From assembly GCA_015183035.1 (NCBI GenBank), contig JACZZP010000016.1, positions 310,001-374,000 of the forward strand: 64,000 bases of DNA. Reading direction: 5' to 3'. The stretch is from Meloidogyne chitwoodi (taxonomy: Eukaryota > Nematoda > Chromadorea > Rhabditida > Meloidogynidae). Positions 47,867 to 64,000 of this stretch are shown piece by piece; within the stretch, counting starts at the first letter, position 1; each line of letters opens with the position of its first letter. Below the pieces are notes generated by a model. That model was not told the origin of the DNA and made no database searches. It saw only the letters and a program-made list of their open reading frames with translations. The position numbers and the translations under genes were made by a program.

Positions 47867-48410
47867 TGTAAGGCAGACTTTGATCCTGCCAGGCCAAAGA
47901 TGGAAAGATAAGAAAGGGGATGAACAAAGTCCCAGCATATAAGGAAATAGAAGCAGGGAAAATAAGTCACTCTGAAAAAGTCACTTTGCAAAGTCACTCT
48001 GTGAGAACTCCGCTGATCAATTGCAAGCGTAGAGTAAACATCCAAGCGCTTCCCGGGAAGTCGGCCTCGACGCCGACCAACTAATATATAACAGAAAGGC
48101 CTCCCTTCCACGCTCCCTCTAGCTTATATGCCTGCATCGACCTTGGGGATATTAACACCTTTGGGAACAACAATAAACAGCACCTTTGGGGCCCCAAACA
48201 TCGGGGATACTTTATACAACATCGCACGCCACAACGGGACCTATAACATCATTCCATCAAGGGCCCAACAAGCTTTACTGGTAGCACCTCAACTTTTCCT
48301 GGGTATGGGCCCGTACCTTGGGAAAGGGGGATCCAGGCGCGAGAGGAGTTGGAGGATGAAAGCCGCCTTCGGGCGCAGAAAACACTCAGGTGTTAAATAA
48401 AACTAATTCT
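47867..48410 (+). mobile_element. GC-rich block, possibly an LTR or leader of the retroelement
   Basis: The block starts TGTAAGG and can be read to end in CA, is far richer in G+C than its flanks, has a TATA-like CTAATATATAACAG near 48080, and ends with a hairpin plus AATAAA (48381-48401). That hairpin is related to those inside the downstream retroelement's genes. An open frame (48128-48400, 90 aa) crosses it but resembles no known protein. A second copy that would prove an LTR is not in the window. Confidence 0.35.
48381..48401 (+). promoter_or_regulatory. Hairpin plus AATAAA, non-coding version
   Basis: AACACTCAGGTGTT folds as AACAC-TCAG-GTGTT and is followed by AAATAAA. Compared with the coding copies (GACAC...GTGTC), the outer G-C pair is replaced by A-T on both sides, a paired change. 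This could be a polyadenylation hairpin. Confidence 0.55.
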
Positions 48411-50150
48411 TCAAAAAAATTATTATTTTAAAACTAATTATTTAAATAAATTCTTCAAGAATTGTTATTATTAAATAAAATTAATTCTTCAAAAAATTTT
48501 TTTTTTAAATTATAATTAATTAAATGAAATTGAATTTTTTAAATTTAAATAAAATAATTTTTTTTTACTTTTTACTCAAAACTTTTTATTTTTCTTTTTA
48601 ATATTCATATTAATATTGCAACATTTTTCTTATTATTTTTATTCTCAAAAAAATAAATATATTGTTCTTTTCTCTCGTTAGTCATATGAATAACATTTTA
48701 TTTTGATCTCTCTCTCAAAAAAAAAAATCGTTCTCACATAAAAGAAATTTTTTTTTTTATTGTCGAAAAATCAAAGTTCATCCATTAAATGAAAAAAAAG
48801 AATAAAATATTTTTTTATTATTTTTAAAATAATGGCGGCTGTAGGGAACACATATAAAATTTTTTTATATATTACTAATCCTTAAACTTTATTAACATCT
48901 GTCTCAAACATCTGTCTAAAATTTTTTTTTAAATGTCAATCTATAAAAATAATTCTCTATTATTCACAAATTTAAATAAATCTTTTATTTCTGTTATATC
49001 TACACAAATTGCATTTCAAAAGAAATGACTCATTTCTTCACTACACGAATATGAATTTATTCCATCATTACAGTTAAAAAATAAAAATAATATATTCGCA
49101 ATAATTTCACTAAAGTGTTTTCTTTTCTTTAACTAACTAGGACAAAATTTTAATAATCTTAGATTCTTTATCAAAATTAAATATTTATTTTAAAATAATT
49201 TTAGATTCTTTATTAAAATTAAATACTCATTTTAGAACAACTCTCACTCAAACTCTTAAATAAATAAATAAATTAATTAATTTTTCGCTCTTCTTCTCAA
49301 ATCATTTAAACCGTAATTTAAAGACCAATCAAAATTTTTTTTTAATCCCTTTCCTCTTTTAAATTAAATTTTTTTTTATTATTATTCAAAAATCACAATT
49401 CAAAAAATACAAACATTTCATCTTCAATGTCTTTATAATAATAAAAGTTTTTATTATTCTATTTGAAAACAGGTGCACACTGGTCAATCCCAGAAATTTC
49501 GAAAAGGTCAATGTTATAAATCTCAAAATGGTCAATCTTATAAATTTTCGAAAGGGTCAATCCAAAAAAATAGATTCATTTTTAGATAAAAATACCAAAT
49601 CAATTTATCAAAAGTTAGTTTTATATTTTTATTTTGTTTTATTGACATCCTTGGTAATTAGCCTAATTAAAATTTATTTAAAAATTGCCTTATTAGATTC
49701 TATATATTTTCTATTGTGTTAGTTTTTGGCTCATTGACAAAATTTATTTTTTAAATAATAAACTTTTAAATTTATTTTAATTAAAACTAATTAATCCTTT
49801 TTAATTCCTTTTTTTTTACTAAAATAAAACTAATTATTCAAGAAACTCATCAAAAATCTATTATTAATATAAATAAAATAATTCTTCAATCATAATTAAT
49901 TAAATAAAATTAACTTATCAAAAATTTTTAAATTTAAATAAAATTTAATTCTTCAATTTTTAAATTTAAATAAAATTTAATTCTTCAATTTTTAAATTTA
50001 AATAAAATAATCTGTCTAAAATCAACTAATTAAATTCTTAAATAAATTTTAATTTAAATAATTAATTTAAATAAAATATTTTTTTTTGTACTTTTTACTC
50101 AAAACTTTTTATTTTTCTTTCTTATATTCATATTAATATTGAAAAAAAAT
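48411..50150. other. AT-rich non-coding stretch with direct repeats
   Basis: No gene. About 65 bp at 48557-48622 (containing ACTTTTTACTCAAAACTTTT) recurs at 50080-50145 in direct orientation, and AATTCTTCAA motifs recur through both ends. Near 49465-49560 a GGTCAATCTTATAAAT-like unit is repeated three times. Open frames here are AT-driven. Confidence 0.55.
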
Positions 50151-50159
50151 AAAAATAAC

Positions 50160-50690
50160 TCTAACAGTAATTAACATACTCAGAATTATTAAAGGATTCA
50201 AACTAGACGTGTGCGAAACGTCTTGTTTCGTTGTTTCGTTAGTTTCGTTATTTTTTTTTCTTCGTTTCGTTTCATGACGAAACACTCAAATTTATCACGA
50301 AACGTACGAAACAAAATTTATTAAAAAAAAAAAAAATTTCCAGTTTTGAGTAAAATTTTTGAGATTTTTACTAGAAAATGCCATGTTTATCTTATTTGTT
50401 GAATTATTAAAATACATTTCCCTTTATAAATAATTTTCAGAATATTTTAGCATAAAGAAAATTTTATAATGTCAAATAAACGTTTCGTTTCGTTTCGCTG
50501 TTTCGTTAGTTTCGTTACTTTTTCTTCAATTCGTTTTGTTAACGAAACACTTTTAAAAAATTTTTTTTTGTTCGTTTCGTTGGAAAAAATTTCGGTGTTT
50601 CGCACAGGTCTGATTCGAACCAAAAGCAATTTAACAAAATAGGCTAACGCTATAACCATTAAACCAAAAGTGCACAAGCCTGTTTTAAAT
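50160..50690 (-). mobile_element. tRNA-derived SINE interrupted in its B box
   Basis: The minus strand from 50688 reads an A-box-like TGGTTTAATGGTTATAGCG, then GGTTCGAAT where a MITE (50206-50612) intervenes. It resumes as GTTTGAATCC and an AT-rich body. It resembles a tRNA only over the two promoter boxes, so it is not called as a tRNA gene. Confidence 0.6.
50206..50612. mobile_element. hAT-like MITE E (TAGAC.TGTGCGAAAC ends)
   Basis: The ends TAGACGTGTGCGAAAC and (complement) CAGACCTGTGCGAAAC are flanked by ATTCAAAC (50198-50205) and ATTCGAAC (50613-50620), an 8-bp duplication with one change. Both ends have TTTCGTTTCG arrays. No coding capacity. Confidence 0.8.
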
Positions 50691-50832
50691 AATAAATTTT
50701 TAATTAAAATTTTAATTTTTTCCCTTTCTCGGAAAATTTATTTTCTCTTTCTCAAAAATTTTATTTTCTCTTTCTACCTCTTTATCTCTAATTCTAATAT
50801 ACAATTATGTAAATGTGTGAGTTCAAAAAATA

Positions 50833-51157
50833 AGGGGCAAAGGGCATGATTCGAAGAGAAGTAATCTCTGAAAAAGAAAAGAGCAAAGGGCGAAATTCGA
50901 AGAGAGTTAATCTCTGAAAAAAAAAGGGACAAAGGGCAATATGCAAAGAGATTTAATCCTTTTTTTTTTAAAAAAAATAATAATAATGGGAAAAAGGGGC
51001 AAAAGGGCAAGATTCAAAGAAATTAATCTCTGAAAAAGAAAAGAGCAAAGGGCGAAATTCGAAGAGAGTTAATCTCTGTAAAAAAGGGACAAAGGGCAAT
51101 ATGCACAGAGATTTAATCTTTTTTTTTTTTTTTAAAAATAGTAATAATGGGAAAGCG
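50833..51157. repeat. Two tandem 162-bp units upstream of gag
   Basis: The units start at about 50834 and 50996, each containing AGCAAAGGGCGAAATTCGAA then GAGAGTTAATCTCTG and GGGACAAAGGGCAATATGCA, and end with a T-run and AATAATGGGAAA. Lying between the presumed left end and gag, they may be a leader or enhancer repeat of the retroelement. Confidence 0.8.
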
Positions 51158-51368
51158 GAAATGGACTATGATTCCTTTCTGTCCACAAATCACTTAAAAG
51201 CAACAATGGGAATCATTTTATCAACATTCAGGATCTTGGACAATTTAGCTTAGGACTTAAGGGATAAATACACCAGCATTTAGCTAACCTTGAATCATTC
51301 AAAAATATTTTTGATTTTCTAATTTTTAATTTTTCAATTAAAATTTTTTTTGCGTTCTAACTTCTAAA

Positions 51369-51375
51369 TTTTCAG
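51369..51375 (+). promoter_or_regulatory. Splice acceptor upstream of gag
   Basis: TTTTCAG, the nematode 3' splice consensus, lies 74 bp before the gag ATG after a T-rich run. It could accept a cis-spliced leader or an SL trans-splice. Confidence 0.4.
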
Positions 51376-51448
51376 ATTTTTCAAAAAAAAATTCTTTCAA
51401 AGCAAACAAGCAACTCAAAGAAAAACAACGATTCAAGAACCTGTCTTC

Positions 51449-52922
51449 ATGTCTACAACGGAAGGCAACGCTCAGGGCACGCCCATGGACACCCAGGTGT
51501 CAAATAAAAGCTCGTCTACTCCCATCATGGAGGAGTCGCTAATCAACGTGGTTGACAAGAAACTTCTCATGTCGAAGGCCAACACGGCACAAGTGAAGAT
51601 GCAGGATCTCGAATTGGTCTTTGGTGAAACAATACGACTTGAAGAAGGGGTAAATCGATCTCTTCGAGTAATCAACAGAAAGGTAAACCAAAACTTATCG
51701 GGATTAAGCAATCTCACTGAGGAAGTTAATGAAGGATTTACCACGTTTGGTGAGAAAATAACAAGTTGTGAAAAAGAAATTTTAGAACTGTCAAAAAGAA
51801 AGGCAAGATCAGTCTCGCCTTCTAACAGAACCAAAATTGCGAAAACATTAATGAATCGTCAAATTCATGAACTAAACTTTTCGAATATTTCAGAAAACAA
51901 CTGGGCAGAAGAGTCTCAAGTTGATGGAAGTCATCTTCATCCAATCAATGATGAAGGCACTCATACACTGAACATGATCAGCCATGAAGGAATTCCGACT
52001 CTTGAGGTATATTCGGATGATAATATAATTTCGTTTGACAGGTGGGGAAAAAGATTCTTAGAAAGAATGGAAGTATTTGGGTCAAGACTTTCAGAAAAAG
52101 AGAAACTTGCTCGACTGTCATTATTTTTGGAAGATACACCCAAACGCATCTTTGAAGATTTAACTGAGATACAGAGAAGCTCGTGTGACTAGCTTTACAG
52201 AACATAAGAAGCGAACTAGACTCTCCGCAACGACGTGCTCTCTCAAGGAGAGCATTGCTAGTATGTAGACAACATGAAAGTGAGTCAGTAAAAGAGTTTC
52301 TGTCGCGCTTCAGACCACTAGCTTTGGCATCTGCAGCTGATATTACAGGTACAAACAAAGAGCGTTACTTATGTGAGTTACTCTTAGAACGCTTGCGACC
52401 TAATATTGCGTTTTGCATGAAATTACTAAATATTTCTCAAACAGATCGGGGGTTCGAACAGCTTTGTTTAGATCTTCGAGAATTGGAAATAATGCTGGCT
52501 GGAGGCATGGGATCGATGTTTGGTACGACCAAGGAAGACTCACAGACTCATAAAGAAGTCAATGTGTACAATGTACCAGGGAAGTTTCAATCCTTGAACC
52601 CTACTAATCCAAACAAAATAAAAATTGGTCAAAATTCAGAACAAAATTTTAACAGAAATGATTATTTTTCGAACAAAAATATTTCTCTTAACTTTAGAAA
52701 TAATCAGAGAAACAGAAATCAAATTCGCACTCCAACAAATGAGCGTCGTTGGAATAACAGACCAGTGTGCAACTATTGTTCAAAAGTGGGCCACTTCGCA
52801 AGTGTCTGTAGATCAAGAATTGCAGACTTTCAAATACAGCGAGGTGATCAAGGACGTAGAACATTCGGAACAGGATCATCAAATCAAAATCAGAACTCAA
52901 CTCAAGAAAATCGTATGCTAAG
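51449..52922 (+). pseudogene. gag: gag (capsid-like region and nucleocapsid zinc knuckle), frameshifted
   Basis: Two open segments, 51449-52192 (about 247 aa) and 52255-53007, lie in different frames. The reading frame slips near 52185-52255 and stop codons separate them. The first begins with a low-complexity N-terminus containing MDTQVSNK (residues 13-20) and a coiled-coil-like stretch, and ends in a capsid-like helical region (FDRWGKRFLERMEVF). The second continues with VKEFLSRFRPLA and RYLCELLLERL, typical of retrotransposon gag. It ends with the zinc knuckle CNYCSKVGHFASVC (C-x2-C-x4-H-x4-C) near 52768-52809, flanked by R/N-rich sequence. Gag would form the particle shell and bind genomic RNA. 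The hAT insertion at 52923 cuts the frame. Confidence 0.85.
51488..51508 (+). repeat. Hairpin copy 1 (gag)
   Basis: GACACCCAGGTGTC folds as GACAC-CCAG-GTGTC and is followed by AATAAA. In frame it encodes part of MDTQVSNK. It is identical over 24 nt to the copy at 57863-57886. Confidence 0.9.
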
Positions 52923-55750
52923 TAGAGATGGGAACGGGTCCGGGACCCGGTCCCGTTTCCCGGTTTCCGGGTCCCTTTACCCGGTTTTTTTTGAGTCACC
53001 GGGTTGAAATCGGGACCCGGAATTCCGGGTTTACCCGGTTCGGGTCCCGGCCGGTCAACTTTCAATTCCCGTTTCCCGTTCCCGGTCCCGGACATTTTTG
53101 CACCGGGAAACCGGGTAAAAATATTTTAAGAAAATTGTTTTAATTTGGCGCAATTTTTAGTTTGGCGATACGTTTCTACATAAAAAAATAAATTAGAGTC
53201 TAGCATAAATATACATTTTTTTAAAAATTAAAAATAAAATCAACTATTATTCGTTAACATAACCTAAACATCATGCCTTTCCTAAAATTAATTTTGTTAT
53301 CTAGTAATATGTCTAACAAACATCCAATTTGGAGTGTTGAACGAGAAGACGGTGAAAAATTGTTTCAACGTGTTGATGGCGAGATTAAATGCAGCGATTG
53401 CAATAAAGTATTAAAAATTTCTGATCACAGTGTCTCAGCATTCATTCGCCATTTATCTTCATCATTACACAAGAATTCCAATTATCTTAAAAAGTATCAA
53501 GAATTGATTGATAGCAAAGGAAAATCAAAAGATGAAAAAATTACCAATTTTATGAATATCAAAAGTTCAGGTTTTAATTTTACTTTTAAAAATAAAATAA
53601 TCATTAAATCTAATAGGTAATATTACTGCTCAGGATAAAAAGGTGCTAAATTTCATAGTCTGTTGTAATCTACCTTTCAACATCATAAATAACATAACGT
53701 TTAAAGTTTTATTAAAAGAAAAGCCAAAGGAACGAACAACATTTACAAAAGAAATTTTACCTGAGATATACATTAAAGTAAAAAGTAAAATCAAGGAAGA
53801 ATTGAAAAACTGTCTTGCTTTAAGTTTTAGTACTGACATATGGACAGCTGATACAACCAAAGATTCGTTTATTAGGTTGTTAATATTTTATAATTAATTA
53901 TTGTTAATATTTAAGTTTGACATGTGACGGTATTACTAAAAATTGGAATAAAAAAAGGCACATTTTATCTATAAGAAAATTTAATGGTAGTCACACTTCA
54001 GAGAGAATAGCAGGTATAATTAAATAATACTATTAAATATAAAAGTTAATTATAGATAAACTAGAAGAGCTGATTTTGGAGTGGGGAGTGCAGGATAAAT
54101 GTCATTCATTCCTCAGGGATTCGGCAGCAAACCTGAAAAAAGGTATTTCAATGATACGTATTTGGAATGATGATGGTGAGAACTCATTGACTGAAATTAA
54201 GCATGCCAATTGTTCCTGTCATGACTTAAATTTATGCGTAAAAGACGCTTTTGGAAAACAAAAAAATGCAGTTTCTGATACATTTGAGAAATGTAGACGT
54301 ATTGTTGGCCACATGAAGCACTCATCCAAAACTTTAAATGAATTTAAAACTATTCAAATGGAGTTAGGTCTTGCGCGTCACAAACTGTTACAAGTAAGTG
54401 AAATTGGGATTTATAATATATAATGCTAAGTATTTTAGGATATCACGACGCGTTGGAATAGTTTATTGATTATGCTGCGAAGATTGTTGGAGCAGAAATC
54501 AGCAGTTGATGAACTTATGTTTCAAAAGAGAGAATTTGAGCTTGTTTTGACTGAACGTGAATGGCATTTACTTAGTTTAATAGAGGTTAAGTTAATAGAA
54601 ACTAATTAGCATAAAATTAATTTTAGAAACTTTTAATCCCAACCGAAGAAATGTCTCTTTGTTTCTGCGAGTCATTGCTTTCTACGAAAATTCCATATGC
54701 ACAAATTCTCATAATAAAACTACAAAAAATTGATGTTAGAGTCGAAATCAATGGGGTGATAAATGAATTAGTCGAAATTGAGGAAATTAAAATGCGATTA
54801 ATTAATGGCTTAAAAAAAAGATTTCTTTCTATGGAAACAGATAAGTAAGTCCGTTGGATAAGTATAGTATATTTAAATTAAATATTTTTAAATAGGCTTC
54901 ACGCTGTATCGACGTTCGTTGATCCAAGATTCAAACATTTTTTTGCAAGGGACAGAATTACATTTCTTGCGAAAGTTACTACTTGGCTTTTGGAGGAAGA
55001 GGATGATGTAAGAAAATTACTATTAAAAATAGTTTCACATTTAGGATGTTCTATTTGAGAATGAGCCTGAGATTTCTAGTCCAATTTCAAAAAAACATTT
55101 TACATTTCTTGATGAAGTTGAGGAATTTGCATGTACCAGCAAAGATAATGGTAAATTATCTTTCATTTATATTATAATTTAAAATAATAAACAGAACCAC
55201 AAGCAAAAAAAGCATTGGAACAAGAAATAAAACTTTATTCGGAGCAGCCGAATTTGGAACAAAGAAAAGATCCATTAGATTGGTGGCGAGAGAATGAAAA
55301 AAATTTTCCTAAACTGGCTTCAATTGCTCGGCGATTTCTGACGGCACAAGCCACTAGCGTTGCTAGTGAACAATTGTTCAGTACCGCACGTGATACTTAT
55401 AACTTTAAAAGATCAAATTTGACACCTGAAACTGCTGAAATGGTTATATTTTTGAACAAAGCAATCCCGTCACTTAATTACATTTATTAAATTTTATGTT
55501 TATCTGAATAATAAATTTATTTAATTGAATAACACTACATATTAACAATCGTTTCAAACAATTTTGAATTTTTACACGTATTTTAACAAATTTAAAATTA
55601 CCCGGAACCCGGCCGGGACCCGGTCATTTTTTCACCGGGTTGAAAACGTGACCCGGAATTCCGGGTTTTCCCGGTTCGGGTCCCGGCCGGTCATTTCATA
55701 TTTCAAATACCCGGAACCCGGACCCGGTTTTTTCAAAATTCCCAACACTA
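52923..55750 (+). mobile_element. Autonomous hAT transposon (element D), exact 8-bp TSD
   Basis: The ends TAGAGATGGGAA and (complement) TAGTGTTGGGAA, and the exact duplication ATGCTAAG (52915-52922, 55751-55758), define a 2828-bp insertion. The duplication fits the hAT preference nTnnnnAn. Both ends have CCCGG/ACCCGG-rich arrays. A complete-looking transposase gene lies inside. The retroelement's reading frame is the same on both sides of the duplication, so the insertion itself is the only break at this point. Confidence 0.95.
53273..55490 (+). CDS. hAT transposase (BED finger and hAT dimerisation domain)
   Basis: About nine exons with short introns; clear coding segments are 53273-53570, 53617-53875, 53909-54002, 54055-54393, 54440-54585, 54628-54848, 54897-55008, 55047-55150 and 55195-55490. 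The N-terminus is a BED zinc finger (a Trp, then IKCSDC and [10 protein letters not shown]). The middle has the RNase-H-like core with SFSTDIWTA and TCDGITKNW. The C-terminus is the hAT dimerisation domain ([20 protein letters not shown], then [12 protein letters not shown]). hAT transposases cut and paste DNA and generate 8-bp duplications, as seen here. I found no internal stop when introns were chosen in frame, so the gene may be functional; small exon-boundary errors are possible. Confidence 0.85.
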
Positions 55751-58700
55751 ATGCTAAGTGAAATCTTAACCACTTTAAGGAATCTTCAGGTGGGTAATTT
55801 TAAAAATAATGAAACTCAAAATGTAAATGTCTTGCATGGAGAATCAAAAATGGAACAAAGTACAAGTAAAACCCAGGAACCTAAAATTAACAAAACTGAA
55901 AAACATTCCATTTCGGCGTGGGAATCGTTCAAAATTAGTCCAAAATTACTTCCAATGATTATGCTTTTACTAGCGATTATAGCTCCTTCGCACGCTATAG
56001 AAAGACTTTCAATTCCGCAGTATCCAATGATATGCCAAACTGAAAAACAATCAACATTATGGTCCCTCCCAACTATGTCAGAATGTCCAATACCGGCTCC
56101 CAGCGTATCTCATGTACCAATCTCTCAAACTAGGGACGTATATATGCTAAATGATTTAGAATACACTACGGAAGGATGGGCTTGTAGAAAAATTAGAAAA
56201 ACCGTAAGAAAATTTACAACTTTGTCTAATGTACCAGTTAATGAACCCGTAGGCTCTGAAATGCTCCCAATGGGAAAAGAGGAGTGCTCTCGAATGATTA
56301 AGCATAAGGAATGTAGCCTAGGTAAACTTTCTGAAGAAAATGAATTATGGACTACCTCAAACAAAATAGACATAAGTCCCAAAATGTGGCTTATAGGGTC
56401 ATTTTGGTGGTCCACAGTACAAGCTGAAAATTGTTTACTGTTCAAAATACAAATTAACTCGCACTGGGGTGAAAAAGGAATAGGAACATCCCTAGGGGAA
56501 AGCAATAACTGCTCCTATGCCACAGGAAACTGTGAACTAAGTGAAAACACTTTACTAATTTGGCAACCTGATAATAACCGAATGTGTAGGTATATGCCAA
56601 TTGGATCCTGGGAAGGTAAAATTTTAGATAACACATGGCTATCTGATGATGCACAACTCGCATTACACTTTGAAAAACCAACTCCAAAATTTATTGACTG
56701 TGGGAAAATTTTGGAAATTTCTGAACAAGGGTTGGCAACTGTAACTCGCAGGCGTACAAAGCGTAGCTATACGGATCAAAAGCTTGCTTTAGTAACATCT
56801 CCAGAGATGGCAGCTAAGCTTACATATTTAGACAAAGAATGGGCTAATACTTTAACATTTACTTTTACGCACTCATTAAAAACATTTTGCCAACATTTAG
56901 ATTTAGTAAAAGAATGGGCCATTGCAGCATATCTGTCTAATCCAACTGGACTTGCAAGAATGATCTTCAACAACGACTATCTAATTGCAAAAAGAGAAGG
57001 TTCTACACTTCTTCGAATATGGCCATGCATACCACTCAAAGATGAAGAATACAAGTTTGCTGCGACTCAAATGGACGAATGTTTTGATTTACTCCCAATT
57101 CAATTCAAAACAGAACAAAAGGATCAGCTAGCGTTCCTCAATCCTCTAACAATGATTGTTGAGCCAACAGCACGAAAAGCACCCTGTTTGCAGGTAGGTA
57201 AAATTACTTTAGAAATTAATCATACAGTTCTAGAGGTAAATCAAACTTCAGGGGAGTATAAAATAATACATCCTCGACCAATAAATCTCATGGAAATAAA
57301 ATCCTATAGCATTCCAGAAATAAAATCGCACTCATTTCATCAATTAATACTAGTAAATCTAACTGATTTAAAAACACATGCATTTATGACTAATTGGGTA
57401 AAGGCAAGCGAAATCTCGTATCGCATAGAACAAAAAGACATGCTAATTACTAAAACGCTTTCAGAACAATGGAAAGACGCTGGGAAAAGCCTGTTTTCGG
57501 AAATTATAGGTGATTATACATGGGTATGGAAACTAGTCATCACACTTATAGTAGCTATTTTAACCTTGGACCTTTTTCTAAGATGGGGGGTCAAAGCAGC
57601 CGAAAATTACCTGGGGCAAGGACAACTAGGTAACATGCTATTTGGTAGAAATACCAGGCCTTTTAGCAGAAATTTATCTAAAACGCCAAGGGCACCCAAG
57701 ATAATAGAAACCAACATCTGTGAAACCAAGGAAGAAATTCCAATGATAAAAATAGATAAGAAAGAAACAACTTGGATTCCAAGGGTATCTAAGTTTCCAA
57801 CCTCGGAAACAGAAAAACATACAATCAATGTTATGTCTCTAAGTGAAAACTCTGATTCGTCAATGGACACCCAGGTGTCAAATAAAATTTTAGTTAACGC
57901 ATTTAAACTTGGACCCACAATTACTGAGGTATCAATAAACAATAAGTCAGTAAAATGCCTTATTGACACTGGGGCTAGCATCTCCATAGCACCACTCTCT
58001 ATAGCAAACACCTTAGGACTAAGTCTATATCCAGCAACCCTTAGTATCACTTCAGCCTCAGGGCAGGAAATAGCAGTACACTCTCAAGCTGAGGTATGGT
58101 TAGAGATTGCAGGGGTTAAATTACTAGTAACACTAAGATTTGTTAGTGATAACAAAATAACCGGAAGTAGAAATTATCAAATAATAATTGGATGCGATAT
58201 ATTAAAAATGTTACCTCCGATTACATTCGACTTTAACAAGAAATCCATAAAGATAGGAAATAAACCTGAATGTCTAAGTATAACCAGGGCACCTTCAGAA
58301 AATATGCGCGTCGCTGCGGTTGAATCTAAAACAATTTTCCCAGGAAAACATGCACTCGTTTCAGTAAAAGTTCAAACAGAAGGGGCTGAAAAATTTGCTC
58401 TAATACATAAACTCGACTACAGACTAGAGAAGGACCATCTGACACTCATTGAAACAGTGGTCTTGCCTAGTGAACAGACAAAAATACTGATTGCAAACCC
58501 AACAACTGCGCCAAAGCATATATGTAAGGGAATGCATGTTGCTTTAGCTGATGAATTATGGTCATGTGAGGAACGACCATGGCTATCACAGGTGAAAAAC
58601 CCAGAAATATGCGAACATGTCAACACATTAGAGGTAAACCCTTCATTTAAAATAGATTTTTCGAAAAGTGCAGTGCAAGGGGAAGATAAATTAAAATTAG

Positions 58701-59104
58701 AAAAGCTCTGCGAAGAATTTTCAGACATATTCAGTAAGTCTCAGTATGATTTAGGCTCATGTCTAGCATGGGAATATGATATAATCACTACAACTGAAGA
58801 TCCCATAAGTTCTAGACCACACAGAGTTCCATTTAAATATCAGGAAGAACTTCAAAAACATATAGAAGCTCTCATGAAATCAGGGGTAATGGTAAAATCA
58901 GACACACCATGGGTCTCAAATATTGTTCTAGTACAAAAGAAGGATGGGGGATTAAGACCATGTATTGACTTTAGAAAACTCAATGAGATAACAGTACCGG
59001 ATCACTTCCCATTACCAAGATTAGAATCAATAATGGAGAAAATAGGAAATGTCACTATTACTCATCTCTGGACCTTTCAAGTGGGTACCTACAAATTAGA
59101 CTAA
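55751..59104 (+). CDS. Env-like glycoprotein fused ahead of protease and reverse transcriptase
   Basis: One open frame of 1117 codons. Residues 67-82 are a hydrophobic signal or first membrane segment (LPMIMLLLAIIAPSHA). A Cys-rich ectodomain follows, with a WWSTVQAENC segment and NCS, NHT, NQT and NLT glycosylation sites. A furin-type site, RRRTKR, sits at 333-338, and a membrane anchor (WVWKLVITLIVAILTLDLFL) at 591-610. This surface-cleavage-anchor layout is that of a viral fusion glycoprotein; its source family is not evident to me. Residues 705-712 are MDTQVSNK. Next is a retropepsin-like protease with DTGAS at 739-743 and then IIGCDIL, followed by the RT N-terminus (WVSNIVLVQKKDGGLRPCID, then FRKLNE). 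The frame is lost inside RT at about 59060-59104. Env between gag and protease, rather than after integrase, is unusual. Confidence 0.85.
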   Translation: MLSEILTTLRNLQVGNFKNNETQNVNVLHGESKMEQSTSKTQEPKINKTEKHSISAWESFKISPKLLPMIMLLLAIIAPSHAIERLSIPQYPMICQTEKQSTLWSLPTMSECPIPAPSVSHVPISQTRDVYMLNDLEYTTEGWACRKIRKTVRKFTTLSNVPVNEPVGSEMLPMGKEECSRMIKHKECSLGKLSEENELWTTSNKIDISPKMWLIGSFWWSTVQAENCLLFKIQINSHWGEKGIGTSLGESNNCSYATGNCELSENTLLIWQPDNNRMCRYMPIGSWEGKILDNTWLSDDAQLALHFEKPTPKFIDCGKILEISEQGLATVTRRRTKRSYTDQKLALVTSPEMAAKLTYLDKEWANTLTFTFTHSLKTFCQHLDLVKEWAIAAYLSNPTGLARMIFNNDYLIAKREGSTLLRIWPCIPLKDEEYKFAATQMDECFDLLPIQFKTEQKDQLAFLNPLTMIVEPTARKAPCLQVGKITLEINHTVLEVNQTSGEYKIIHPRPINLMEIKSYSIPEIKSHSFHQLILVNLTDLKTHAFMTNWVKASEISYRIEQKDMLITKTLSEQWKDAGKSLFSEIIGDYTWVWKLVITLIVAILTLDLFLRWGVKAAENYLGQGQLGNMLFGRNTRPFSRNLSKTPRAPKIIETNICETKEEIPMIKIDKKETTWIPRVSKFPTSETEKHTINVMSLSENSDSSMDTQVSNKILVNAFKLGPTITEVSINNKSVKCLIDTGASISIAPLSIANTLGLSLYPATLSITSASGQEIAVHSQAEVWLEIAGVKLLVTLRFVSDNKITGSRNYQIIIGCDILKMLPPITFDFNKKSIKIGNKPECLSITRAPSENMRVAAVESKTIFPGKHALVSVKVQTEGAEKFALIHKLDYRLEKDHLTLIETVVLPSEQTKILIANPTTAPKHICKGMHVALADELWSCEERPWLSQVKNPEICEHVNTLEVNPSFKIDFSKSAVQGEDKLKLEKLCEEFSDIFSKSQYDLGSCLAWEYDIITTTEDPISSRPHRVPFKYQEELQKHIEALMKSGVMVKSDTPWVSNIVLVQKKDGGLRPCIDFRKLNEITVPDHFPLPRLESIMEKIGNVTITHLWTFQVGTYKLD
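57866..57886 (+). repeat. Hairpin copy 2 (before protease)
   Basis: GACACCCAGGTGTC followed by AATAAA, identical to the gag copy over 24 nt, although the surrounding coding sequences are unrelated. Confidence 0.9.
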
Positions 59105-61685
59105 CCGATAAAGCTTCAAGAAAATGTGGTGTAATTATGGAAAATGAAATATACCAAATGACACACATGCCTTTTGGGCTAAGAAACGCAACAAGCGCAT
59201 TCGCAAGGATCATGGCGCACGTAATAAGCGGCTTAGATGACTGCGTCCTGGATACGTAGATGACTTTTTAGTATTTACAAAAGCACCAGACTTTGAAGAA
59301 CATTTAGTAGCTCTAAGACAAGTATTTACAAGATTAAGAAAGTATTTTCTAAAAATAAGTCCGAAAAAGTGCATACTTGCATCAAAAGAAATGAACTTTC
59401 TAGGGTATACCATCAACGCAAATGGGTACACACCCAGTCTGTCAAAGGTAGAAATAATTAAAAATTTACCGGCACCCACTACAGTAAAAGAAGTCAGACA
59501 AGCAATAGGAATGGCTTCATTTTTCAGAAAACATATAAAAAACTTTTCACTAATTACTGAACCGCTAACAAAATTAACTAGAAAAGAAATAGAATTTAAT
59601 TGGGCTGAAGATCAAGAGCAGGCGTTTAACAAAATAAAACAAATACTAACAAGCAAACCTGTTTTAGTGTTTCCTGAGTACTCAAAACCATTTCATGTTT
59701 TCACAGACGCCTCACTAACTGGACAAGGAGGGGCTCTAATGCAAAAAGATGAAGAAGGTAACGTATTTAACGCAATAGCATACTGTAGTCGTACGCTAAC
59801 AGCATCAGAACGCAAATGGGCACCCGTACAAATTGAATTAGGGGCTATAATATATTCTTTAAGACAATTTAGACCATTTATTTACATGGCAGAAATTGAA
59901 CTACATACCGATCACAAACCTCTTGCATACTTACTCAAGAAAGCAGAAGTAAGTCCAAATTTGGCTCGATGGCTTATTGAACTTCAGAACTACAATATCA
60001 AAATTGTACATGTATCAGGTAAGGAAAATCTTCTTGCAGATGCACTGTCAAGACTACAAAGACAACCAGACCAGGAACAAACCGAATTGGATGACATCGC
60101 AGAATTCCCAATATGCTTCATGCTACCCATCAAAGATGGACTAATAGATGAACATTCTGCTTCTGTACTCACTCTGAGAAAGGAAGATGAACACTATGCA
60201 ATTGACATGAAACAAGAACAAAAGGATGACGTAGAAGCCGCAGGGTATATTAAATTTATAAAAACGGGAGAAATTCCTGAGGACATATCACCTCTTGAAC
60301 ATGAAAAATTTGTATTAAATGCCGAAAATTTACTAATTATAGGGGACGTACTCTGTCAAAAAATCCCAAATTTAAAACCAAGGGTATTTGTACCTGCCTC
60401 GTTAAGAGCTCTCATTTTTGACTCATTTCACTCATCACAATTAGGGGGTGGTCACATGAATCTTAAAAAGACACTCAAAAAATGTAGGAAATATTATTGG
60501 CCAAGAATGCATGCAGATATTTAAACCTGGACACGCAATTGCATAACATGCCAACTCAGACATTCACCTAACCCTCCTTATAGGGCAGAAATGCAAATGG
60601 CACCAACCGCAACACTATTTGCAAAAGTAGGGCTAGACCTAGCAGGACCTTTTCCCTTAACGCAAAATGGCAATAGACACATAATGAACATAATATGCTG
60701 GTTTACCAAGTATGTAATATTTGTTCCGGTACCAGACACAAAAGCAATGACTCTTGCGAAAGCATTCCTTTCAAACTGTTACTTAAAATTTGGGGGATGT
60801 GTTGAACTCTTAACTGATAATGCGACCGCATTTACAAGCGAATTCTTTAAAAATTTCTGTTCAATGCTTTACATAAATAAAAGTTATGCCACTCCACATT
60901 GGTCACAAGGGAATTCAGTAACTGAAAGATCTTTTAGAACTTTTCATAACATTCTCTCAAAATACATAAGCAAAGATCAACCAGATTTTGATGAATTTTT
61001 AGATTGCGCATGCTTCTGTTATAACACATCCATTCATGCGTCCACAGGTGAAACACCATTCTTTTTAATGTTTGGTAGGGATCCAATATTTTGCATTGAT
61101 CAAATACTGGACCCTTCAGTACAAAGTCCAATAGCACTAACTGATATTTCTGAATTTAAGCAAAAACTAGTAACGTCCCTCAGATGCGCCTGGGAGGCAG
61201 CAGATGAGGCAAACAAACAGGCTCTTTTAAAATCTAAAACTCAATATGACAAGTTAATTAGAAATCCTACAATCACAGTAGGGGATAGAGTACTACTAAG
61301 AAATTACACCGGGAAAATAGGAACTTCCAAAAAATTTAACATGCCATGGAAAGGGGTTTTTAGAGTAATAAAGATTGAAGGGATACACGTAACAATAACA
61401 AGTTGCAATTCGCCCCAGGGCATATCCAAAAAAGTCCATATAAACCAGCTCAAAAAATGTTTTGAACCTCTTACTCCTGCGTGTACAGCACCAGAAATAT
61501 CACATGAAGAAGAAGAAGCTCTAAGAGAAGCTGAAGAAAATCAAGAACCAGAAAACGTAAGTTTGAAATCCGCTCCCGAACTCCTGACTGACGATCCGCT
61601 CCCTCAGACAAATCAGGTAGCTCAAGATAATAAAAATAAATATAACCTTAGGAAAAACCCTCGGAGGAAAAAGTTTTCAGTTTAA
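59105..61685 (+). pseudogene. pol: RT C-terminal half, RNase H and integrase, with frame lesions
   Basis: RT continues in another frame (MPFGLRNATSAFARIMAHVI) and slips again just before the catalytic YVDD at 59253-59264. From there one frame runs to 60524: the RT thumb, then RNase H (VFTDASLTGQGGALMQ; an ELGAIIYSLRQF region; HTDHKPL; LADALSR). It then enters the integrase zinc-binding domain, whose HH part precedes, and whose CITC part follows, an in-frame TAA at 60522-60524. From 60591 the same frame encodes the integrase core with a D in GLDLAGPFP, a D in LLTDNATAF and the E in GNSVTERSF. A C-terminal SH3/GPY-type module ends in KKVHINQLKKCF. The order RT-RH-IN marks the Ty3/gypsy lineage. 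Confidence 0.88.
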
Positions 61686-61959
61686 AGTCAAAAAAAAAAA
61701 CCAGAAAATTAGGTTAGAGTCGCATATCTACATATCTATTCTAATCTTTCAAAAATTCTATCATTTCTATCTCCAAAATTTCATACATTTTTCTCGAACA
61801 TCATATATCTCTTTTTCTATCATCACATTTTCAAACATTTTTCCATAACCATTAACTTTTCCATATTACATCTATTCATTTTACGCGTATCACACAATTT
61901 ATTTCACATTTCGCGTTTTAATTTAAAATTTCACTAAAATTAATTTTTTTTCTTTTCAG
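61686..61959 (+). promoter_or_regulatory. Spacer ending in a splice acceptor before the helicase ORF
   Basis: A pyrimidine-rich, C/T/A-biased spacer (CATTTTTC-like repeats) leads to TTTTTTTTCTTTTCAG at 61944-61959, three bases before the helicase ATG (61963). This is a strong nematode 3' splice site, so the helicase is probably read from a spliced or trans-spliced subgenomic RNA. Confidence 0.6.
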
Positions 61960-61962
61960 ATA

Positions 61963-64000
61963 ATGGACGAAAAATCAATTAAAAAGAAAGGTCGTGGAAC
62001 TTTCAGCTCTTTAAAGAAATTGGGGCTGGACGACAATGGTGAATCTGGTGGGTCAAACAACATGTCTTCAACATCGATATCGGCTTCGGCCATGGACACT
62101 CCGGTGTCAAATAAAATATCGAAATCGGCTTCCGCCATGGACACTCCGGTGTCAAACAAAAAATCGGCTTCGGCCATGGACACTCCGGTGTCAAACAAAA
62201 CAAAAATAAATTATGTAGAAGATCCAGTAGTTAAAATACTCTTAAAGGAAGCAGAAGAAGAAGAACGAATGGTAATAACAAAAAGTATGGAAGAATTACT
62301 TTTAGATGCTTCTTAAGAAGAAATGGAATTAGATTATAATGAAGAAGAAAAAGAAGACAAAACTAATGAAGAATGGTCTCAACAACCATCAAATTGGTCT
62401 AATTTAAATGAAGAAAAAGATGCTAATCCAAAAGAACAATTCGCAAATAATCCTTGGGAAGAAGTAAAGAAGAAACCAAGAAAAGAATTCTCAGAAAAAT
62501 CAAAAGAAGTTGTGGAAGAAAAAAGGACTAAACGATACGTCATCTCACAAATTCAAGAGAAGAAAACTATTGCTGTGGTGCCTAATCCTGACAAACTCAC
62601 AAATTGGCCGTTCTTGATTGAAGTGCCAAATGAACTCACGGATGATCTCGAAAGACCTCTCTTTCCAGGTGATTCGATCTTCATATCAGATTTTAAGTGG
62701 CTTGAGGGAAAGAGGCAATTGACGAACGACACATGGTACAGAAAAGAAACGGGTCTTTTAGGATACCAAGCAACAACTCTATTCATTAAAAATGCAAGAT
62801 TTGCTGAGTGGAAAACAAAAACAGGATTTGTAGTTGATTTTAAAAAGAAAGGAAGTAAATCAATGAAAATGAAAATTGCCGCCTATGGACTTGAAAGAAC
62901 TTCTGCTCTGTATTCTGCACAGTGCTGGGAAGGTTTAAACATGGACAACTTGCGACAATCGGAATTTATAACAACAAAATTGGCGTCCATTCCAGCAGGA
63001 TGGATGATAGGTACTAATTATGTAGTCCCGCCTGGCAGCTCCTTTAGACTTGGAACTGAAATAATGGCGAGGGAAGAGGCGCATATACTCGCATGTGCAA
63101 CACCATTCAAAGAAAAATGGCTTTGGCTCACTCAGTCCAAATTGCCAAAAGTCTTTCCAATTGAGAAAGAATACACCTTAAAGGAAATGCAACTGGCTGA
63201 AGATATAATAGCAGCAGCACTAATGACAGCAGCAGAAAATGAAGAAGTCACAAGAATGGAAACGAGTTATATTGGAAAAGTAAAGAAATTAAAAGATGAA
63301 AAAGGAAAATTATTCTTAATTAACCACATACATAATGAGAAGGCTCATATTGCAAAAGTTCTGTCAATATGGACGAGGGACACTCCAGTTACAGCGAAAA
63401 CTGGTTTTGAAAGGAAGTCTTTTGCAAATGGATATATAAAAGAAGTCAAAAAATGTGAAAGAGATGATGGCCTACTACAAATTGAAATTCAACTAATTTT
63501 AGTAGCAAATGAAGGTCTCTACGACCATGATGAAGACTATGAAGCAATGAGCCATGACACAACAACAATAATACAAGTTGCGGAGAATGCAGGTGGATAC
63601 CGTGATCAAGCGGATACATTTGGAAAGCATATCCCGACTCAATTGATAAAAGAAGAAAAAACACCAAGAACTGAAATATTAAAGGGATTACTTGGACGTC
63701 CAGGGTCGGACGACCCCGCGGTTGGAGGCGCGATACCTAATGAGCTAGACTGCGTCAAAACTTTAAATGAAGAACAACAAAATACACTGGCCAACTTTCT
63801 GAATGAAGGCCGGGGGCGCCTGCACTTTCAGCAGGCACCCCCGGGAACCGGGAAGACACGGCTCGCATCAGTTTGCATCGCTGCAGCAGTACACAAGAAT
63901 CCTGAAACACACATACTTGCGACGGCAATGGCTAATCTTCCGATTCTAAAATAATTGAAGAAACTGAGAAAATTGAATTAGGGACTGATATGCTCGCTTT
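61963..64000 (+). pseudogene. SF1 (UPF1-like) helicase ORF of the retroelement, 3' end beyond window
   Basis: Two open segments in the same frame, 61963-62316 and 62323-63954, are separated only by a TAA (62314-62316). The first is low-complexity and contains MDTPVSNK three times. The second has an acidic start, a domain of about 400 residues I do not recognise (PNPDKLTNWPFLIEVP, later FPGDSIFISDFKWLEG), then LNEEQQNTLANFLNEGRG and a Walker A motif APPGTGKT at residues 505-512. The Q-motif-like region followed by this Walker A fits SF1 RNA/DNA helicases of the UPF1/DNA2/ZNFX1 group. The frame shifts at about 63945 and continues open to the edge, where the remaining motifs should lie. Membership in the element is inferred from the shared hairpin repeat and contiguity. 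A readthrough stop is possible in place of decay. Confidence 0.75.
62095..62192 (+). repeat. Three tandem hairpin copies in the helicase ORF
   Basis: GACACTCCGGTGTC occurs at 62095-62108, 62140-62153 and 62179-62192, each inside a unit encoding SAMDTPVSNK. The stem GACAC/GTGTC is unchanged from the gag copy; only the loop differs (TCCG instead of CCAG). UCCG closed by C-G is a UNCG-type tetraloop. AATAAA follows only the first; the others have AACAAA. Confidence 0.9.

What the first reader, a model, noticed from the sequence alone, without database searches (positions are those of the whole stretch)
51449..64000. Retroelement with env between gag and protease, plus its own SF1 helicase ORF
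Seen in sequence: a zinc-knuckle gag, then a glycoprotein-like domain with a signal segment, furin-type RRRTKR and a membrane anchor, then DTGAS protease, RT, RNase H and integrase in gypsy order, then a helicase ORF with Walker A. Established: retroviruses and env-bearing gypsy elements normally place env after integrase, and I know of no well-described Ty3/gypsy element with a UPF1-like helicase. Inference: this may be a distinct lineage of nematode endogenous virus-like elements that acquired a fusion protein upstream of pol and a helicase that could help replication or evade host RNA surveillance.
Basis: partly seen in the sequence, partly recalled or inferred. Interest (0 to 1): 0.92.

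Follow-up and report, generated by a model that had tools for sequence, protein, structure and literature searches.

The report
Nematode retroelement with env mid-polyprotein plus helicase
A root-knot nematode genome carries a virus-like mobile element whose membrane-fusion protein sits in the middle of its main polyprotein instead of at the end, and which also carries its own helicase gene; relatives with the same layout show that this is a real lineage and not a one-off rearrangement.

Summary
This is a Ty3/gypsy-type LTR retroelement, window 47867 to about 1.9 kb past the window end, with 413-bp LTRs 100% identical. Order: gag with zinc knuckle, class III (gB/rhabdo-type) fusion glycoprotein, protease, RT, RNase H, integrase, then a UPF1-like SF1 helicase before the 3' LTR. 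Three diverged families in the genome (A, B, C) share the order with helicase; two more (D, E) have internal env and no helicase detected. Predicted proteins of M. incognita, M. enterolobii, M. hapla and Globodera rostochiensis repeat the internal env. Nine internal-env RTs fall on one side of a branch (98/95); six element helicases do too (100/100). Homologous env genes in this genome's BEL/Pao elements sit at the usual 3' end (7 of 7 found). One pair of family-C helicases gives dN/dS 0.155. Inferred mechanism: Env is threaded through the ER membrane from inside Gag-Env-Pol; the helicase comes from a spliced mRNA and acts on element RNA.

The parts
47867..48279 (+). 5' LTR (413 bp); the 3' LTR lies 1460-1872 bases beyond the window end
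   Evidence: 100% identical pair; flanking ATAT on both sides
48280..51448 (+). long AT-rich leader with PBS-like start GGTAGCACC (primer tRNA not identified) and a TTTTCAG acceptor-like site at 51369
51449..52192 (+). gag, N-terminal part (frame closed at 52192 in this copy)
   Evidence: relatives carry gag in one frame with env
52255..52922 (+). gag, C-terminal part with CCHC zinc knuckle; cut by the hAT insertion
52923..55750 (+). hAT DNA transposon inserted in gag (not part of the element); 8-bp target duplication ATGCTAAG on both sides, empty site in the second copy
   Evidence: zf-BED and Dimer_Tnp_hAT
55928..55996 (+). internal hydrophobic signal segment of env
   Evidence: (residues 257-275 of P0001), window coordinates by arithmetic
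55997..57649 (+). class III fusion glycoprotein (env): furin-type RRRTKR at about 56747-56764, membrane anchor about 57515-57592 (by arithmetic)
   Evidence: Pfam PF24664 E 5.2e-5 here, under its cut-off; over cut-off in C, D and P0011; fold gB-like
57926..58207 (+). aspartic protease, DTGAS
   Evidence: PF13975 E 3e-8
58847..59657 (+). reverse transcriptase (frame changes in this copy)
   Evidence: copy 2 RT against PDB
59601..59993 (+). RNase H
   Evidence: PF17919 E 8.1e-31, PF17917 E 7.2e-30
60390..61685 (+). integrase: H2C2 zinc-binding, catalytic core, C-terminal part (a stop closes the frame at 60524 in this copy)
61944..61959 (+). splice-acceptor-like TTTTTTTTCTTTTCAG ending three bases before the helicase ATG
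   Evidence: 8 of 20000 mononucleotide shuffles of the spacer place TTTTCAG in the last 12 bases
61963..64000 (+). SF1 (UPF1-like) helicase ORF, interrupted at 62316 and about 63954, continuing to 1312 bases beyond the window end with a C-terminal CCHC knuckle
51485..51507 (+). repeat coding MDTQVSNK in gag (also 57863-57885 before the protease; MDTPVSNK at 62092, 62137, 62176 in the helicase N-terminus)

Best explanation
This is an LTR retroelement / endogenous retrovirus-like element of the Ty3/gypsy type, of a lineage of plant-parasitic (tylenchid) nematodes in which a class III fusion glycoprotein lies inside the Gag-Pol frame, between the gag zinc knuckle and the protease, and in which one sub-lineage carries a UPF1-like SF1 helicase before the 3' LTR. 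Shown by sequence: the order, its conservation, the RT grouping, the grouping of the helicases, and low dN/dS in one helicase pair. Inferred mechanism: Gag stays in the cytosol; the internal hydrophobic segment threads the Env ectodomain into the ER; furin cuts at the R-x-K/R-R site; a second membrane segment returns the chain to the cytosol, where protease-RT-RNase H-integrase follow and protease frees the parts. The helicase is made from a shorter mRNA through the acceptor just before its ATG, and acts on element RNA: most likely unwinding structured or double-stranded RNA, protecting it from silencing or decay and helping export or reverse transcription.
For: Order in the second copy, LTRs 99.75% identical, no hAT; family B between 352-bp 100% identical LTRs; family C. 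Env search of the genome (15 matches = 14 places, a lower bound by the tool's note): 7 places internal, with gag seen before env in 7 of 7 and protease after it in the 6 of 7 that reach so far; the other 7 lie 4.1-5.0 kb (start to start) after a BEL/Pao Peptidase_A17 match on the same strand. Seven predicted proteins found with the env region: knuckle before env in 6 of 7 (P0006 begins at the signal segment), furin motif and later DTGA in 7 of 7. RT tree split 98/95, 9 internal-env rows against 6. Helicases 100/100, 6 of 13 rows. Family-C helicase pair: 54 synonymous, 29 nonsynonymous changes, dN/dS 0.155. TTTTCAG three bases before the helicase ATG; in Cer1 of C. elegans the exon 5 acceptor TTTCAG is experimentally verified (PMC10309623, passages).
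Against: No expression, topology or processing data. Env might be made from spliced RNA and not as a polyprotein. Charge differences around the membrane segments are weak, and P0011 shows only one hydrophobic segment. TTTTCAG occurs six times in the window part of the element. Only family A has the strong acceptor at the helicase ATG; B has TTTTTAG about 20 bases upstream, C none clear. No AG-GTAAGT donor in the window part of the element. Two B derivatives (C4; C29 as judged from its ORFs) lost pol and kept gag plus all or part of the helicase. No Globodera helicase was found, in searches that scored only about 8000 capped candidates. No host nematode helicase was in the helicase tree, so one acquisition is likely but not proven.
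Confidence: 0.62

Rival explanations
1. The env stretch behaves as an alternative exon: Gag-Pol is made from RNA with env spliced out, and Env from a separate spliced mRNA, so env is in the middle of the DNA but not of the protein.
For: Nematode elements use splicing: Cer1's cerv is made from spliced RNA (PMC10309623, passages). M. enterolobii P0006 is annotated from the env signal segment onward. Acceptor-like TTTTCAG sites occur upstream of gag and of the helicase.
Against: The frame is open through env from the gag knuckle to the protease in copy 2, C, D, E, P0005, P0007, P0008, P0009, P0010 and P0011, which an excised exon need not keep. No AG-GTAAGT donor in the window part of the element.
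Confidence: 0.3
2. The order is a local rearrangement or a misassembly of an ordinary gypsy element next to a host helicase gene.
For: The window copy is damaged and carries a foreign hAT transposon.
Against: Two LTR-bounded copies of A, one of B, the C arrangement, and internal env in predicted proteins of four other species.
Confidence: 0.02
3. The helicase is a captured passenger gene without a role in the element's cycle.
For: Deletion derivatives exist, and D and E have internal env without a detected helicase. Both A copies have damaged helicases: interruptions in the window copy, a 219-bp in-frame deletion covering the YRSHP motif in the second.
Against: One group across A, B and C and in two other Meloidogyne species, core motifs kept in P0002, B and C, dN/dS 0.155 in one C pair, splice acceptor at its ATG and CCHC knuckle in A.
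Confidence: 0.1
4. The helicase is chiefly a suppressor of host RNA silencing (unwinding dsRNA), as proposed for SF1 helicases in insect LINEs.
For: PMC5563155 (abstract and passages) reports virus-derived SF1 helicases in TRAS and Jockey LINEs and refers to an earlier report of silencing suppression by the TRAS one.
Against: Those helicases come from plus-strand RNA viruses; this one is nearest NAM7/UPF1 among solved structures by sequence. Not tested.
Confidence: 0.35

Closest known systems
Ty3/gypsy (Metaviridae) LTR retroelements
   Same: protease-RT-RNase H-integrase order; RT-RNase H nearest Ty3 in the PDB (E 6.8e-78, next non-Ty3 1e-35); LTRs
   Different: env lies between gag and protease; a separate helicase ORF precedes the 3' LTR
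Errantiviruses (env-bearing gypsy elements of insects)
   Same: gypsy-type element with an env
   Different: env likely of baculovirus origin there (PMC12440569, passages) and after pol (recalled); here internal, class III, with helicase
BEL/Pao elements with env (Roo, Tas, Cer7; Anakin)
   Same: a homologous env occurs in this genome's own Pao elements; Cer env attributed to herpesvirus and Anakin's to chuvirus (PMC7642597, passages)
   Different: in Roo, Tas and Cer7 env is downstream of the polyprotein; pol here is gypsy, with no Peptidase_A17 match at A-E
Glycoproteins of Mononegavirales/Jingchuvirales, among them that of Socyvirus heteroderae, and herpesvirus gB
   Same: best Foldseek matches (viral E 7e-26; gB E 5.4e-17); PF24664 over cut-off in C, D and P0011
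   Different: here inside a retroelement polyprotein; 10-20% identity in the listed rows; TM-scores only about 0.17-0.30
UPF1/NAM7 and SMUBP-2 SF1 helicases
   Same: helicase core and motif set
   Different: no UPF1 zinc-binding (CH) domain match; CCHC retroviral-type knuckle at the C-terminus in family A
SF1 helicases in insect LINEs (TRAS, Jockey)
   Same: a retrotransposon carrying an SF1 helicase (PMC5563155, abstract and passages)
   Different: non-LTR elements, plus-strand virus helicase type, inside ORF1 or ORF2

Membership tests
Ty3/gypsy LTR retroelement | LTRs bounding the element and a target duplication | tested here: met
   413-bp LTRs 100%, second copy 99.75%, B 352 bp 100%; ATAT flanks in both A copies, but in AT-rich surroundings
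Ty3/gypsy LTR retroelement | protease-RT-RNase H-integrase order and Ty3-type RT | tested here: met
Ty3/gypsy LTR retroelement | place within named gypsy clades by phylogeny | not tested
   no reference gypsy sequences held; the tree used this genome and database hits only
Errantivirus | env 3' of integrase (recalled) | tested here: not met
   env between gag knuckle and protease in A-E and in predicted relatives
Errantivirus | baculovirus F-type env | tested here: inconclusive
   all 50 PDB rows shown are herpesvirus gB; F proteins not tested directly
BEL/Pao | Peptidase_A17 domain | tested here: not met
   none of the 32 PF05380 places listed lies at A-E; all 7 terminal-env elements have one
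Class III fusion glycoprotein | profile and fold match | tested here: met
Class III fusion glycoprotein | fusion activity | not testable with these tools
   -
SF1 UPF1-like helicase | motifs I, II, III, IV, V, VI | tested here: met
   P0002, B and C carry them in alignment A1 (motif names recalled); window copy interrupted, copy 2 lacks the YRSHP motif
UPF1 proper | UPF1 zinc-binding (CH) domain | tested here: not met
   no PF09416 match up to E 0.01 in 4 helicases scanned (A copy 2, C, P0002, B)
Anakin-type BEL/Pao with chuvirus glycoprotein | Pao-type pol | tested here: not met

The most novel reading that the evidence does not exclude
A recently active lineage of enveloped retroviruses of tylenchid nematodes in which a single Gag-Env-Pol chain is threaded twice through the membrane, so that each Gag and Pol is born tethered to its fusion protein at a fixed ratio, and in which a captured UPF1-like helicase shields the genomic RNA from host surveillance; its fusion protein has been exchanged between gypsy and BEL/Pao elements in the same worms.
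Probability: 0.33. Interest if true: 0.92.

Novelty: new variant of a known kind. Interest (0 to 1): 0.78.

Why it matters
Roo, Tas and Cer7 carry env downstream of the polyprotein (PMC7642597, passages), as retroviruses do (recalled). A conserved group with env inside the polyprotein poses a direct question of membrane topology and of how Gag, Env and Pol are separated and counted. None of the papers that my ten searches listed describes, as far as titles, abstracts and the passages I saw show, an LTR element with this order or with such a helicase. The homologous env, terminal in Pao and internal in gypsy, makes env exchange between two superfamilies testable in one genome.

Tried and rejected
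Local rearrangement or misassembly: rejected by the second copy, other families and other species. Helicase as a flanking host gene: rejected, it lies inside the LTRs in both A copies and in B. The C12 and C8:450 helicases as host genes (my first reading): rejected when they proved to lie 3' of family-C integrase matches. BEL/Pao membership: rejected. The MDTxVSNK repeat as a conserved motif of the lineage: not found in P0002-P0011 (one unrelated pattern match in P0012), so a feature of this family only. Env of C12 by sequence against the PDB: nothing up to E 1. P0009 (gag to protease) against the PDB: only a weak match to an entry called OR280. Helicase relatives in IMG/VR: none of 26 pattern matches confirmed; env scan there not possible. 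Integrases of D and E were not among the matches at E 1e-10, so their 3' ends and lack of helicase are less sure. The paper library lacks most subscription journals.

Full report
Host. The window lies in G000:C8:310001-374000 of a 47.48-Mb assembly in 30 contigs. The nearest named proteins are from Meloidogyne, so the host is a root-knot nematode; that size and contig number fit a published M. chitwoodi assembly is recall and comes from no call.

Extent and anatomy. The element runs from 47867 in the window to 1872 bases past its end (C8:357867-375872, 18.0 kb) with 413-bp LTRs 100% identical. Between them: an AT-rich leader, gag with a CCHC knuckle, env, aspartic protease, RT, RNase H, integrase and a helicase ORF ending in a second CCHC knuckle about 150 bases before the 3' LTR. 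A hAT transposon (52923-55750) with an 8-bp target duplication is lodged in gag; the second copy has the empty site. The ATG at 55751, which looks like the start of env, is the duplicated target. The window copy has stops or frame changes in gag, RT, integrase and helicase. The second copy (C8:1618721-1633910, minus strand, 15.2 kb, about 1.24 Mb away, LTRs 99.75% over 400 bases) holds a 296-aa gag ORF, a 2175-aa frame from the gag knuckle to integrase, and a helicase ORF with a 219-bp in-frame deletion covering the YRSHP motif.

Same order in other families. Family B (C3:658219-676082, LTRs 352 bp, 100%) has gag, env, protease, RT, RNase H, integrase and helicase in the same order; its helicase is 27% identical to the window's, and the frame changes near the start of its env. 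In family C (C12) the env, RT and integrase matches each report a 2692-aa open frame, and a 1277-aa helicase starts about 1.3 kb after it; its LTRs were not seen. A second C helicase follows a partial integrase at C8:447329-453154. D (C11) and E (C7, and a partial copy at C8:280612) have gag-env; D and E at C7 go on to protease and RT. No helicase profile match lies beside D or E among 25 listed, but their integrases were not found and their 3' ends not read. Genome-search counts are lower bounds by the tool's own note.

Other species. With the env words of the second copy, seven proteins came back among 3721 candidates: one of M. incognita, three of M. enterolobii, one of M. hapla, one of G. 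rostochiensis and one from an unnamed source (P0011, lgn). Knuckle before env in 6 of 7, furin-type motif and then DTGA in 7 of 7; RT follows in the 4 of 7 that are long enough. The Globodera RT-RNase H is 75% identical to the window family's, closer than B (59%) or C (61%). Helicase relatives: M. enterolobii (51% over the full length; a second at 42% over 69%) and M. hapla (39% over 77%); the M. hapla helicase (ACQ4LE_005285) and env protein (ACQ4LE_005279) bear tags six apart and the same longest-contig length. No Globodera helicase came back, but those searches scored only the best-sharing 7992 and 7986 candidates.

Trees. RT, 15 rows: the nine internal-env rows are split from six other gypsy-type elements of this genome at 98/95, and A, B, C and Globodera are together at 99/99. 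Cautions: D is 46% complete, P0011 and some outer rows have long branches, and the order of B, C, D and P0011 is partly open. My two label groups (with and without helicase) gave 2 changes each, because Globodera, whose helicase state is unknown, was put in the second. Helicases, 13 rows: the six element helicases are one side of a branch at 100/100; two outer rows are long, C has an odd make-up, and no host nematode helicase was included. With D and E lacking a detected helicase, the simplest history is internal env first, helicase later.

Helicase. The P0002 core is nearest NAM7/UPF1 (E 7.3e-17) and then SMUBP-2 among solved structures. AAA_11 and AAA_12 are over cut-off in A copy 2, B, C and P0002; no UPF1 CH domain is listed; A and P0002 end in a CCHC knuckle, while the B and C tails have none. 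The two C helicases differ by 54 synonymous and 29 nonsynonymous changes, dN/dS 0.155, which points to selection on the protein. Env comparisons were too close or saturated to be strong (E copies, knuckle and env part, ratio 0.254 from 8 changes; A copies 0.549 from 3; D against E 0.46 by uncorrected proportions).

Mechanism. The open frame through gag-env-protease in copy 2, C, D, E and six predicted relatives suggests one translated chain. Two or more hydrophobic segments lie between knuckle and protease in 9 of 10 sequences examined, which would leave Gag and Pol in the cytosol and the furin site in the secretory path; charge asymmetry is weak. TTTTTTTTCTTTTCAG ends three bases before the helicase ATG of A; TTTTCAG occurs six times in the window part of the element, one of them starting 80 bases before the gag ATG. 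Cer1 is the precedent for splicing and for an accessory protein needed for genomic RNA export (PMC10309623, passages). SF1 helicases in insect LINEs, with silencing suppression cited for one, are the precedent for a helicase in a retrotransposon (PMC5563155, abstract and passages). The role of this helicase stays inferred.

Verdict. A new variant of env-bearing LTR retroelement: gypsy pol, internal class III env, helicase.

Noticed in passing
window 51485, 57863, 62092, 62137, 62176: A 23-base repeat with a palindromic core codes MDTQVSNK or MDTPVSNK in gag, before the protease and in tandem in the helicase N-terminus (three copies here, five in the second copy). It may be a processing or interaction motif, or a small spreading repeat; not found in P0002-P0011.
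   Followed up: partly
window 52923-55750: hAT transposon with CCGGG-rich direct repeats near both ends, inserted in gag.
   Followed up: partly
L021, frame 1, residues about 1185-1325: Family C has two DTG protease motifs in tandem, which could make a protease pair within one chain.
   Followed up: no
L015 (C4:371001-381000) and L050 (C29): Deletion derivatives of family B that keep gag and helicase, or part of it, and have lost env to integrase (C29 judged from ORFs).
   Followed up: partly
L028, L029, L027, L031: BEL/Pao elements with a domain before env that looks SGNH-hydrolase-like by eye; no Pfam match in L028 up to E 0.01.
   Followed up: no
L013 2058-7141: About 5 kb (26% GC) without a listed ORF of 150 aa between integrase and helicase in family B.
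   Followed up: no
window 48280-51448: A 3.2-kb AT-rich leader with direct repeats between the 5' LTR and gag, intron-like in make-up.
   Followed up: no
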